Of a DNA stretch of 64,000 nt, positions 25,701 through 31,700 are shown one piece after another. Below the pieces are notes generated by a model. The model saw only the letters and a program-made list of their open reading frames with translations, was not told the DNA's origin and did no database searches. The DNA is from Ptychodera flava (lineage: Eukaryota; Hemichordata; Enteropneusta; Ptychoderidae). The translations under genes and the position numbers were made by a program. How positions within the stretch are numbered: position 1 is the stretch's first letter; the number at the start of each line of letters is the position of its first letter. Location of the stretch: the NCBI RefSeq assembly GCF_041260155.1, contig NC_091932.1, forward strand, positions 42,048,125 to 42,112,124. Reading direction: 5' to 3'.

Positions 25701-28700
25701 CCGACCAAAATCATTATTCCACATTGGCTTTAAAGTTAGTGTCCCCTCTGAACCTACCCCATAGACCCGACATAAATTAGGCCGGCCCAGGGCCAACACA
25801 CTCTCGATATGGTTTCTTAAAACCAGAGCCGACTAATAAGCGACCTAAACTCTATAATGTGATAGTAGTAAGAGGGACAGATAAGAGGGACGTAGAAATA
25901 CAAAATGATGGCACGGGGAGCTATGCAAAGACAGGGCACGAAACATAGCCTGAAATAGGCACAAAAGGTTCAAAAGAGCGCTAACCGATGGGAAAGAGAA
26001 ATCGAAAGGAGGGAAAATTCAACCAATATACTAGTCACATACACAGGCATTTCCGTGTTCATTTCGGCAGAAAGGAACCGTGTTTGTTCTCAAGTAACCG
26101 AGTGACTGCATACTTGATTAAATGAATTTCCAATCTGTCCCAGCATAATAGAGCTATTATCACAACGAGGTTTGAATACGCTCACTATTCATCCTCCAGG
26201 ATATGCGCTTTTAATAGGCTTCTGTATTAATTTAGACCCTAGAGAAACCCTTTTTCACGAGGCTATGGTCACATAAAGTTTATGAAATGTTTCCTAACCA
26301 ACGGAAACTGACAGGATTCTGTTATATATTGCATATAAGATGAAAAGCAATCTAATTAATTTCGGCATAATTCCACAGGCTTTTAAAGCTTATTGAATTA
26401 AATGCATATATATATATATATATATATATATATATATATATATATATATATATATATTATATATATATATATATATATATATATATATATATATATATAT
26501 ATATATATATATATATATATATACGTTTGTAATATGACAGGTTCCCCGATGTTGTGTAGCGTGGAAATATACTGTATAAACTAATGAGAAAAATTCACAC
26601 AACTATATCTGATAGTCTCTACACTGCAAATCATTCGGGTGACTTGGGTTCGAATCCTACATGGGTCATTTTTTCAAAGCCCCAAAATTTGCAGTGTAGA
26701 GACAATCATACGAAGTTTCCGATTCGACTGCTCCAACACAAAGTGTTCAATACAAACGTAGAGCGGAATATATAAGAATTGCTGGAGAAATGGTTTTCAA
26801 TTTCATTAGAGCGTCTCTACAACGATCTTTAGTGAGCCACTAGACTCACTCGTCAGGAGGCTAAACTGGTGTGAACACACATCTACGAAGGGTAACCATA
26901 GCTACGTAGCAATCTGCGTAATTAGCAACATGCATCCCTTGTAGATTTATGTTCACACCTGTTCAGTCTCCTAGCCAGTGAGTCGTACTTTCAGATAATT
27001 GTTCAGATTGTACTGTTCGTGTAATTTCGTTGTCCTTGTATTCAACTCGCAAACGTATCCTTTGTGGCATACATAGATTTGTGTACGAAATTCATGTTCG
27101 GATATGAATTCACGTATGAACGATACGAATGCATTCATGTGATCATATTCGTATCAAAATATGAAAAAATATGAAAACCAATGATTTATAAAAAGTTTAA
27201 GGCTTTGTTTCAATTCGCGAATTACCGTAATAGTATTCTTAACTTTAATTCTACTTGAAGGAATGTAGAAAAATTAGAAAAAAAAACGCCATCATAAAGT
27301 TTGTCAACGGAAATAAAATATTATGAATTTGAATAATTATATATTCATGAAACAGCCAAAACACTCCTGAAGTACTATAATCGAATTGACATTTTTGTTT
27401 CCCCACTTTACAACAATTTAAAACAATTACGAGCAAAGAATACAATAGCAACTTACAATATAAATGTGTTACTTCACAACTTCCTGTACAGCACGGTATA
27501 AAGCAATAGGCAGTCAAAATTCAAATTTTATGCAGTAATAAGAGGACGATCGATCGGTGTCTTTCAGTCCTGGAATGAATGCCATCGTAGTGTCGACAAA
27601 TATCCAAGTGCTCTGTTCAAAGGATTTCACAATAAAGAAGATGCTGACCGTTTCTTTGGATCGCTGAGCTCTACGATACAAGGCGACCCTGTCGCCGAAC
27701 ATGACAATGAAACTGAAAGTGAAAGTAGTGAACGACGCCATCTTGATTGCGCATTCCCAACGCACACCGCCGATGACGTTACTTGCAGGCTTCATGGATC
27801 AACGGAGATAGAAACCAAATTATGTGAACTTTATTCGGACAGTGAAACAATCGAGGAAACGGAGGAATCTACAAATGAGGCAAGTAACTTTGAGAAATCA
27901 TTACATGAGGCGATACAGAGTACAAGTAACAGAAATGCGAAAACAACAGCGCAGACTATGATTGCCGAACACTTGAAAAAAGTAGAAGAAAAAACACAAA
28001 TATATGACAGTAGTATACAGCTTATTGAAGATAAATACACCCAGCTGGTGGATTCCAGAAGTGAGGAAAAACAAATCATAGACCAAAATGCTCAAGATAT
28101 TAAGAAATTGAAAGAAAATATACAATCTATCTGTGAAAATGTGGATGAATTATCTGACGAATGCCACAACTGCAGAAACTACAGAGAGGGTGTACTTAAA
28201 TCAATGGACAATAAAATAATTGCGATGCAGACAGCTTTTGAATTGCAACTCAGAGACCGTATAGACAAAGTGGAGTTTATGATGAACAATAAAATAAAAG
28301 AAATAGAAGACATCATTCAAAGAAACACAATAAAGAAACTAACTGAACTAGAAAATAAATATCAGATACAGATAGATATACACCGTATTCAGTGTGAACA
28401 AAAAAATGAAGAAACTACTAAACAACTAAACGATCTGAAGAGCATACTATCACCAGTGATTGATAACGATGACTGGAACTTCCAGAAACCCAAGAAAAGC
28501 AACACCATGAAACGACCTGATAGAGAGCCACCGGCTGTACCGAGACAAAGTGAGATAGAACTTCATAACAGTTTCCCTGCTGACTTTGCTGAAGACCCAA
28601 CTGATGATTCTGTAAGAGAGCCACAGATAGATATCCAAGATGGCACCAATGACTCAGCAAATGGTGTTAATAAACAGCCAAACACCACAGATCAAAAGAA

Positions 28701-31700
28701 CAGAATACCAGCAGTGCAAACTCCTCAAATGCCTCAACCAATGGGAACAACAAGCAAAATGGAAGCAAACACACGTCGTGTTCCAATAAATTACGTAACA
28801 CAAGCGAGTAAACTAGTGATCGGGGACTCTATAACAAAACATTTATCGGTAAGACGCATGTTTCCACGTACACCAGCAGACCACCTTAGGATTCCAACAG
28901 TCGATGAAGCTGTCACAACTTTGTCAGGAGTACGCTCTAATACAGTCGATACCGTTGTGTGCCATCTCGGCATAAACAATCTAAGAAATGGAGACTCCCC
29001 AGAAATGTGTATCGACAAAACTTCCAAGCTAGTTAATGCAATAAAAACTAACATGCCAAATACAGAAATAATTCTGTCAGAAGTACTACTCTGTCCTGCG
29101 GACACCAAATTGGGAGAGAAAATCAGAGAGTTCAACAGCCTACTGCACACCCTAGCAGAGAACAACAAATACATAATTATAGTTCAACATGGTGAACTGT
29201 CCAATTCTAGAAGACTATATACTGAAGATGGGATACACATCAACCGATACGGCACTGCCAAACTGGTGGGTGATATCAAGCAGTCAATACGTAAGCAGAA
29301 TGAACCACAGCAAAGGGACTCGGAATCAACCACCATTGTACCACCCAGACCACCATATAGGAATTCCCGGTTCAACAATTACAGAGAGGGGACCAGCTGG
29401 AAACAAGGAGAACAGACGTGGAATGCAGGACATAACCAAGTTATATAGACAGTAACCAGTATCAGCACAGAGCCCACTATCAACAACGAAGATCCCGGTA
29501 CGCCCTTAGAGACTTTAGAGAACGACCGATATCCAATGAGTATACCAATAATTTAGCTGATTCAGCTAATTTATTTACTAAGTTAATTGATTTGTAAAGT
29601 ATATGAATTATTGAAACCATTGCAAAAATATATACATATATAAACTTGATAAATTCATAATAATTGAATCATAGAAATAGAGGGTCTGGCTCTGCCAACC
29701 GCTTTTTTTTTTCCCTGAACTCATAACTTCACTCATATGAACAATAGGAATTCACTTCTGGTACAATTTACCTCAAAATTTAAACAAAAGATTTGACTAA
29801 AACTTTAATCTACATAAAGCGGCAACAGAACTTTGATCAAAGTCACAATATAACGATTTTTGCTGCATTGACTCTCGCAATTATAGTGAGCGTACTTTGA
29901 ATCACTTTTTTTTTTACTTACCCGCTTGTTAGGTTTCTAATTCAAAGGAAAAGTAATCCAATTTATATTGTTGTTAGTATCTTTTTTCCCTTTTTTCACT
30001 TTTTTGACCTTTTTCTAATTTGATATATCAGTGCAATCTAACTCATGAAAAACAGGACAAATAATAGATCCCATAATGATTTAAAGCAACAAACCTCATT
30101 CAAATTTGGTAGTTGGAATGTAAATGGCCTATATAACAAATTGTATGAAGATGAGTTTATTGACTATATGCTCTCCCATGATGTTGTTTGTATTCAAGAA
30201 ACATGGTTAAATGATAATTTTAAGGATATAATATTACCAAGTAAACTGGATCAGTTTGAAATCATAAGAAAAGACCGAACCAAAAGGAATAAGTGCAACC
30301 GTAAGAGAGGTGGTGTTGCGATAGTTTACAATAACAAACTAAAGCCTTTTATTTCAACAGAAAAATCTAAATCTAACAATTTTCTGTGGTGTAAAATAGA
30401 CAAGAAAATTATAAATAAGCCAAACCCAAAGGATCTTTACATTGGATGTATATATATCCCCCCGGATAATTCCGTAATACACAAAAATAATATAGATCCA
30501 TTCGACCAACTTGAACAGGATATTTTATTTTTCTCCTCGAAAGGAGATATAATACTACTTGGTGACTTTAATGCCAGAATTGGTCAGCTTGATGACATAA
30601 TTGACGACACAAACAACCAGTATATCCCTATCCCACCTAACTATACAAATGACAATTTAATACAAGAAATAATTATGATATTTTATCAAAATGTAGTGTA
30701 AACAAATTTGGTAAAAAACTGATAGAGGTATGCTTAAATTGTAATTTACTTATTCTAAATGGGCGTACCATAGGAGACTCTATGGGAAAGTATACCTACT
30801 ACTCTCACAATGGAAGCAGTACAATTGACTTCGGAATCATATCAAAATCACTTAATGAAGCAGTACAGTATTTCAAAGTTAATAACCTAACACATATGTC
30901 AGACCATTGTTCTATTTCCCTTGCTATTTCAGCCATGATAATAGAAAATAAAGCACCTGAGCCCCAACATATTCTTAGTCCCCTCCCAACTAAATATCTT
31001 TGGAATGAAGAAACCAAAAGAGATTATGTTTCATGTTTACAGGCAGACATAAATAAAATAAACAAGTTTGTCGAAAATAAGTATACTGATGCAAATGAAG
31101 CAGCAGCAGAGTTTGATGCAATGCTGAACAGTATAGCAGAAAAATGCGTAAAAACAACCTCGTCTGCACCTAGAAAACGGAAAAAACAAAAGGTTTATAA
31201 AAAATGGTTCGACAAAGATTGTCTCCAACTCCGGAAAGAACTCCAAAACGTTACTAAAATACTTCAAAAATTCCCTCTTGACCCTATAATACGAGGAAAA
31301 TTCTTTACTTTGAAAAAAACAGTATAACAAAACCATTAGACAGAAAAAGAAAGAACTTAAATTGGCCCAGATAAAACAATTGGAATTCTCAAAAGATGAG
31401 CCTGCACAATTTTGGAAAATACTGAAAGAAATGAATGACATCCCATCTTCCAGCCCAACTTCTGATACAATACACCCTAATGAATGGCTCTTCTATTTTA
31501 AAAATCTCCTCAATAATAAATACCCCATGACAGATATTGATAATAGTAGAGATACTTTAGATACTCAGGGACCAATCCCCAACCCATCTGAAAATAACTT
31601 TATAAATGATAACATACAGGAAAGCTATCAGTCATCTTAAAAATAACAAGGCCTCAGCAGAAGACAAATTATGTAATGAAATGTTTAAATGTGGAAGTTA

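What the first reader, a model, noticed from the sequence alone, without database searches (positions are those of the whole stretch)
27502..29448. LINE ORF1 fused to an RNase H1-type RNA/DNA-hybrid-binding domain
In the sequence: one uninterrupted frame encodes FYAVIRGRSIGVFQSWNECH and DKYPSALFKGF, then a long coiled coil, then an SGNH esterase with GDS, GINN and DxxH. Known: the first part matches the N-terminal hybrid-binding domain of RNase H1 (Cauli_VI fold), and esterase ORF1s occur in CR1/L2-group LINEs. Inference: an ORF1 that grips RNA/DNA hybrids would act directly on the target-primed cDNA intermediate, a logical but to my knowledge undescribed arrangement. The domain lies before the first ATG, so its translation in this copy is uncertain.
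Basis: partly seen in the sequence, partly recalled or inferred. Interest (0 to 1): 0.82.

Follow-up and report, generated by a model that had tools for sequence, protein, structure and literature searches.

The report
Jumping gene with RNA/DNA-hybrid-binding domain
A decayed copy of an animal-type jumping gene (a LINE) encodes, at the front of its first protein, the small module that the enzyme RNase H1 uses to hold RNA/DNA hybrids, which could let the element hold its own copying intermediate, but only this one copy could be examined.

Summary
The 648-codon frame 27502-29448 carries a full-length RNase H1 hybrid-binding domain (PF01693, E 3.5e-15), an acidic linker, a heptad-periodic coiled coil, and an SGNH esterase whose best solved match is a LINE ORF1 esterase (4c1b). 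A frameshifted EN/RT ORF2 follows (30045-33516); no RNase H domain was found in it. Contact residues Y29, R35, W43, D51, P54, F58 and K59 are kept; R57 and K60 are not. A possible 12-bp target-site duplication would put the domain inside the element (chance P 0.002-0.054 by window).

Open: no second copy was reachable (no genome held; other collections are prokaryotic or viral); this copy has no in-frame ATG before 27958; binding cannot be computed.

I read it as a new variant of the esterase-type LINE ORF1, with the hybrid-binding domain as the nucleic-acid grip that such ORF1s were reported to lack (PMC3905857). Holding the RNA:cDNA intermediate is plausible; so is binding double-stranded element RNA. 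Nine searches of open-access papers aimed at it listed no earlier description.

The parts
27445..27456 (+). possible target-site duplication, 5' copy (12 bp)
   Evidence: Exact 12-mer shared with 33794-33805. Chance P 0.0017 and 0.0078 in windows chosen after seeing it; 0.005, 0.016 and 0.054 in three further windows. Suggestive only.
27464..27466 (+). upstream ATG in another frame (not connected to ORF1 in this copy)
   Evidence: opens 24 codons in frame +1 relative to ORF1.
27502..29448 (+). ORF1, 648 codons, open stop to stop, no in-frame ATG before 27958
27523..27654 (+). RNase H1-type hybrid-binding domain (Cauli_VI, residues 8-51)
27661..27948 (+). acidic linker (residues 54-149)
   Evidence: Net charge -15 over residues 54-150
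27949..28506 (+). coiled coil (residues 150-335)
   Evidence: Heptad test P <= 0.001 of 1000 shuffles; no Pfam domain above cut-off in residues 54-366
28507..28818 (+). proline-rich linker (residues 336-439)
   Evidence: 13 P in residues 336-436, no heptad signal in 335-435
28819..29253 (+). SGNH esterase (residues 440-584; S443, H488, N492, S526, D576, H579)
   Evidence: Lipase_GDSL_2 E 9.6e-9; best of four solved matches is 4c1b, 'ORF1-encoded protein', E 1.2e-4; positions
30045..33516 (+). ORF2: endonuclease and reverse transcriptase, in seven open pieces (six frame changes)
   Evidence: PF03372 E 1.2e-12, PF14529 E 2.1e-6, PF00078 E 5.8e-31; RT nearest solved: R2 and LINE-1; pieces; no RNase H family in any of the seven pieces, each searched apart
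33794..33805 (+). possible target-site duplication, 3' copy

Best explanation
This is a decayed LINE of about 6.3 kb (possibly 27457-33793) whose ORF1 is a variant of the esterase-type ORF1: hybrid-binding domain, acidic linker, coiled coil, SGNH esterase. Mechanism (inferred): the ORF1 protein multimerises through its coiled coil, so several hybrid-binding domains act together. They give the particle its nucleic-acid grip, on RNA/DNA hybrid formed at the target site during first-strand synthesis and probably also on double-stranded parts of the element RNA, while the esterase provides membrane or lipid contact as proposed for ZfL2-1. Because no RNase H domain was found in ORF2, holding the RNA:cDNA hybrid could protect it, position it, or steer host RNase H to it. 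Shown: the domains, their order, one frame, the kept contact residues, the neighbouring ORF2. Inferred: translation, binding, multimerisation, and every functional step. The confidence is for the anatomy as one element plus a nucleic-acid grip of either kind; the hybrid-specific reading alone is given in the section on the most novel reading, and the second rival shares this anatomy, so the odds overlap.
For: Full-length domain match far above cut-off and matches to solved RNase H1 hybrid-binding domains. Of 11 contact residues named in PMC9603397 (passage), 6 are identical (Y29, R35, W43, D51, P54, F58), 3 are mild changes (R52K, F53Y, A55S) and 2 are lost (R57L, K60G); K59 is kept too (alignment, residues). 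W43A or KK59/60AA in a triple-domain sensor abolished its R-loop foci (PMC10639055, passage). K60 is S or G in 7 of 7 bacterial/phage RNase H1 domains looked at (6, 1), so its loss is ordinary. Esterase: best solved match is a LINE ORF1 esterase, with the catalytic S, N, D, H and the two positions reported as transposon-specific, H191 and S228, all kept (H488, S526). Schneider et al. state that none of the Repbase esterase ORF1ps had any structural RNA-binding domain, and suggest that an arginine-rich motif may serve instead; here no 17-residue stretch has more than 4 arginines or net charge above +5, and three of the four stretches at +5 are at residues 1-19, overlapping the hybrid-binding domain (the fourth starts at 325). 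Three tandem hybrid-binding domains label foci where a single one is diffuse, so multimerisation would matter. LINEs without RNase H depend on cellular RNase H activity (PMC6068448, passages). Frame open before the first ATG against 0 of 20,000 shuffles; possible TSD enclosing the domain.
Against: One copy only; no relative found. No start codon for the domain in this copy. The TSD is not secure: P 0.054 in the widest window, and no poly(A) or simple-repeat tail precedes it. Two phosphate-contact residues (R57, K60) are lost. The oxyanion glycine of ZfL2-1 (G165) aligns with a histidine, H461. Codon-composition scoring did not single out the ORF1 frame for the domain itself: -0.014 in frame against 0.106 in the +1 frame. 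Some alignments to RNase H1 run beyond the domain into the acidic linker (to residue 79 in 6vrd; to 27792 with L002), which could be composition or could be a trace of an RNase H1 linker. Sequence similarity cannot tell hybrid binding from double-stranded RNA binding.
Confidence: 0.62

Rival explanations
1. The hybrid-binding domain is a host RNase H1 fragment (exon or retrocopy) that lies next to a 5'-truncated LINE and is in frame with it by chance.
For: The domain lies before the first in-frame ATG (27958); of the 8 sequences compared, human RNase H1 is closest, 51% identity; alignments to human RNase H1 (to residue 79) and to L002 (to 27792) run on into the linker; no second copy was available.
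Against: The frame stays open from the domain through about 100 further codons to the coiled coil, and Pfam finds no RNase H domain in it; five bacterial RNase H1 proteins hit the window only within 27511-27792 (E <= 1), so no catalytic domain was seen, though bacterial queries could miss a diverged animal one; the possible TSD encloses the domain.
Confidence: 0.2
2. The domain belongs to the LINE but works as an ordinary RNA-binding part (double-stranded regions of the element RNA, packaging into the particle) and does not act on the RNA/DNA intermediate. (Same anatomy as the best explanation; the odds overlap with it.)
For: Esterase ORF1ps were reported to lack a structural RNA-binding domain, so packaging is the obvious vacancy; two DNA-strand phosphate contacts are lost, R57L and K60G. 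That RNase H1 hybrid-binding domains also bind dsRNA is recalled, not tested here.
Against: Aromatic groove residues W43 and F58 that hold the DNA strand are kept; K60 is also absent from 7 of 7 bacterial/phage RNase H1 domains.
Confidence: 0.35
3. ORF1 and ORF2 are not one element: ORF1 is a separate host or domesticated gene, under selection, with a LINE inserted behind it.
For: ORF1 is intact while ORF2 has six frame changes; with a uniform rate the chance of none in ORF1 is 0.035. They are 596 bases apart.
Against: Esterase with the transposon-specific residues, same strand and ORF1-ORF2 order as in LINEs; possible TSD spans both. An uneven count is not strong evidence, and assembly errors could add frame changes.
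Confidence: 0.08

Closest known systems
Esterase-type (Type IV) LINE ORF1, e.g. zebrafish ZfL2-1 (PMC3905857, PMC4120745; passages; PDB 4c1b)
   Same: Coiled coil followed by a linker and an SGNH esterase with catalytic S, N, D, H and transposon-specific H191/S228 equivalents, upstream of EN/RT ORF2.
   Different: An N-terminal RNase H1 hybrid-binding domain and long acidic linker precede the coiled coil; no arginine-rich motif found; oxyanion glycine aligns with histidine; heptad region far longer than the five heptads of ZfL2-1. In PMC4120745's sample the esterase type occurred only in vertebrate L2 and CR1 subgroups, whereas PMC3905857 reports many animal phyla; this host is unidentified.
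RNase H1 hybrid-binding domain (PF01693, human 3bsu, yeast 1qhk)
   Same: Full-length domain match and most hybrid-contact residues.
   Different: No RNase H catalytic domain found after it; R57 and K60 equivalents are L and G.
Caulimovirus TAV/P6 viroplasmin and a Helitron-captured viroplasmin gene (PMC7102451, PMC4289320; passages)
   Same: The same small domain (PF01693) in another reverse-transcribing or mobile element.
   Different: Neither is a LINE ORF1; TAV is a plant-virus transactivator; the fungal capE gene is a captured Helitron passenger.
LINE-1 ORF1 (coiled coil, RRM, CTD)
   Same: Self-associating ORF1 placed before EN/RT ORF2, with nucleic-acid binding.
   Different: No RRM or CTD family was reported by Pfam here; a different nucleic-acid-binding fold.

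Membership tests
RNase H1 hybrid-binding domain (PF01693) | Full-length profile match above gathering score | tested here: met
   56.4 bits against 21, model 1-44 of 44
RNase H1 hybrid-binding domain (PF01693) | Fold of 3bsu/1qhk | tested here: inconclusive
RNase H1 hybrid-binding domain (PF01693) | Aromatic groove and loop-support residues (Y29, W43, F58, R35, D51) | tested here: met
   All five identical in alignment A1; list from PMC9603397
RNase H1 hybrid-binding domain (PF01693) | Further phosphate contacts R57 and K60 of the human domain | tested here: not met
   L38 and G41; not defining, since K60 is absent from 7 of 7 bacterial/phage domains and R57 is I in yeast
RNase H1 hybrid-binding domain (PF01693) | Binds RNA/DNA hybrid | not testable with these tools
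   Needs a binding assay
RNase H1 enzyme | RNase H catalytic domain after the hybrid-binding domain | tested here: not met
   No RNase H family in ORF1 or in any of the seven ORF2 pieces
Esterase-type (Type IV) LINE ORF1 | SGNH esterase preceded by a coiled coil | tested here: met
Esterase-type (Type IV) LINE ORF1 | Catalytic S, N, D, H and transposon-specific H191 and S228 | tested here: met
   S443, N492, D576, H579, H488, S526 by the alignment to 4c1b (positions; list)
Esterase-type (Type IV) LINE ORF1 | Oxyanion glycine (G165 in ZfL2-1) | tested here: inconclusive
   Aligned to H461 in a weakly aligned stretch
Esterase-type (Type IV) LINE ORF1 | No structural RNA-binding domain (as reported for Repbase members in PMC3905857) | tested here: not met
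   This one has PF01693; a reported regularity rather than a defining feature, hence 'new variant'
LINE (non-LTR retrotransposon) | EN and RT in ORF2 | tested here: met
   PF03372, PF14529, PF00078
LINE (non-LTR retrotransposon) | Dispersed copies and target-site duplication | tested here: inconclusive
   No genome held; 12-bp TSD candidate
CR1/L2 or RTEX clade | RT phylogeny | not tested
   No LINE reference sequences were available; only solved RTs compared

The most novel reading that the evidence does not exclude
A family of LINEs has captured the hybrid-binding domain of an animal RNase H1 as the nucleic-acid grip of its ORF1, so that a multivalent, membrane-associating ORF1 particle holds the RNA:cDNA intermediate of target-primed reverse transcription and controls when host RNase H may remove the template.
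Probability: 0.3. Interest if true: 0.82.

Novelty: new variant of a known kind. Interest (0 to 1): 0.6.

Why it matters
How esterase-type ORF1 proteins hold nucleic acid is an open question raised in print (PMC3905857), and how LINEs without RNase H handle the RNA:cDNA hybrid is another (PMC6068448). An ORF1 that carries a domain known to recognise that very structure would tie the two together and is simple to test, since residue controls (W43A, KK59/60AA) already exist for the domain.

Tried and rejected
Searches for relatives found nothing usable: the window itself; IMG/VR with ORF1 (no pattern match), with the RT piece (7 stretches matched a pattern, 0 confirmed), and with three degenerate patterns, one for the hybrid-binding domain and two for LINE RT motifs (0 matches each); GTDB genomes with ORF1 (25 stretches matched a pattern, 0 confirmed) and with a hybrid-binding-domain pattern (2 hits; by my reading of their ORFs both lie in ordinary-looking bacterial RNase H1 genes). 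Phage records gave 7, all 7 in the N-terminal region (residues 3-58); plasmid records gave 15, 14 of them between residues 4 and 95 and one, H9, in the esterase region at E 0.6; where annotated, the N-terminal ones are named ribonuclease H or viroplasmin proteins. These collections are prokaryotic and viral, so absence there says little about animals.

Codon-composition scoring as a test that the domain shares ORF1's coding history was not informative. The esterase AF2 model has pLDDT 48.5, so its SGNH-like Foldseek matches are not used as evidence. tRNA and Rfam scans of the window were empty. Rejected: that the domain match is chance (E 3.5e-15), and that ORF1 is an RNase H1 gene (no catalytic domain seen).

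Literature: nine searches aimed at this arrangement or its neighbours listed no LINE ORF1 with this domain; a tenth looked for contact residues. Two listings were capped (40 of 660; 25 of 1,328), and from listings I saw only titles and abstract starts. Repbase Reports was not searched, and most subscription journals are not in the library. Papers were read as passages only. Nowotny 2008 and Kapitonov and Jurka 2003 are not held. That 4c1b is the ZfL2-1 esterase is recalled: one search names it 'ORF1-encoded protein', and its residues fit the paper's numbering at S143, G165, H191, N195 and S228 with one constant offset.
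Full report
What was checked. The frame 27502-29448 on the + strand is open for 648 codons. It is the longest of 9 ORFs of at least 140 codons in the window. Pfam finds two domains above their curated cut-offs: Cauli_VI/RNase H1 N-terminal domain at residues 8-51 (E 3.5e-15, all 44 model positions) and Lipase_GDSL_2 at residues 440-584 (E 9.6e-9). Sequence search against solved structures gives human RNase H1 (6vrd, 3bsu) and yeast RNase H1 (1qhk) for the first 153 residues, and nothing else up to E 10. 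For the C-terminal part it gives four matches, the best being 4c1b, 'ORF1-encoded protein' (E 1.2e-4), then two bacterial esterases (E 3.4e-4, 4.1e-4) and one at E 1.1. The region between has heptad periodicity (residues 150-335: maximum P 0.001, mean reached by 0 of 1000 shuffles; residues 52-150 show a weaker signal, P 0.019-0.049; the other two regions none below 0.06).

The esterase. The alignment to 4c1b keeps the catalytic S, N, D and H, and the two positions that Schneider et al. report as specific to transposon esterases (H191, S228; passages), here S443, N492, D576, H579, H488 and S526. That 4c1b is ZfL2-1 is recalled; its residues fit the paper's numbering with one constant offset at five positions. 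The oxyanion glycine G165 aligns with H461. On balance this argues that ORF1 is a LINE ORF1, not a host gene.

The rest of the element. ORF2 (30045-33516) carries endonuclease and RT domains and falls into seven open pieces in successive frames; the copy is dead. No RNase H family was found in any of the seven pieces. ORF1 is free of frame changes while ORF2 has six; with an even rate the chance is 0.035, which I treat as weak.

Is the domain inside the mobile unit? A 12-bp exact repeat, 27445-27456 and 33794-33805, would bound an insertion of 27457-33793 (6337 bases) that includes the domain with a 45-base leader. The chance of a 12-mer or longer in paired windows drawn from the same sequence is 0.0017 and 0.0078 in windows chosen after seeing it, and 0.005, 0.016 and 0.054 in three others. 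It is therefore suggestive. The open frame from the domain to the first ATG is not chance (0 of 20,000 shuffles), and Pfam finds no RNase H part after the domain. Against this, two RNase H1 alignments run on into the acidic linker (to residue 79 with 6vrd; to 27792 with L002), which may be composition. The codon-composition test did not help (the domain scores higher in the +1 frame). The missing ATG is real: codon 153 is the first methionine, a TAA precedes the frame at 27499, and the upstream ATGs listed are in another frame. In a copy whose ORF2 is broken six times, a lost start is unsurprising, but it leaves translation of the domain in this copy undemonstrated.

How it most likely works. 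Schneider et al. write that none of the esterase ORF1ps in Repbase had a structural RNA-binding domain, and suggest an arginine-rich motif instead. Here no comparable arginine-rich stretch exists (at most 4 R in 17 residues), and three of the four 17-mers with the highest net charge (+5) overlap the hybrid-binding domain. The domain would then be the particle's grip. Coiled-coil multimerisation would give avidity; three tandem copies of the human domain label R-loop foci where one copy is diffuse (PMC10639055, passage). LINEs without RNase H need cellular RNase H activity (PMC6068448, passages), so a hybrid-binding ORF1 could hold, shield or present that intermediate. The use made of these facts is inference. 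The nearest rival is binding of double-stranded element RNA for packaging; it shares the anatomy, and its odds overlap with those of the best explanation.

What limits this. There is one copy, no source genome, and no relative in any collection searched. The organism is unknown; the WSC-domain and tyrosine-kinase exons nearby suggest a eukaryote, probably an animal. The LINE clade was not tested.

Novelty. Nine literature searches (listed in Tried and rejected, two with capped listings) showed no LINE ORF1 with this domain. The domain has been reported in other mobile or reverse-transcribing elements: caulimovirus TAV and a Helitron-captured gene in a fungus. I rate it a new variant of a known kind.

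Noticed in passing
35677-36135 and 48668-49096: Two WSC-domain exons on the + strand, 67% identical over 112 aligned positions, apparently copies of one gene.
   Followed up: partly
2641-3006: A fragment of a protein tyrosine kinase domain on the + strand (PF07714, E 4.5e-15).
   Followed up: no
8955-9232: A 146-bp tandem repeat, 1.9 copies, 100% matches, a recent duplication or assembly effect.
   Followed up: no
26615-26703: A 16-base exact inverted repeat (arms 26615-26630 and 26688-26703), looking like a small inverted-repeat element upstream of the LINE.
   Followed up: partly
28132-28173: Cysteine cluster C211, C221, C224 within the coiled coil of ORF1, possibly a metal site.
   Followed up: no
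L005 1195-2643 and L006 1192-2532: In 2 of the 5 plasmid/phage regions fetched, the RNase H gene with this domain lies directly before an RnlA-type toxin gene, as PMC3710099 describes for the RNase LS family (passage).
   Followed up: no
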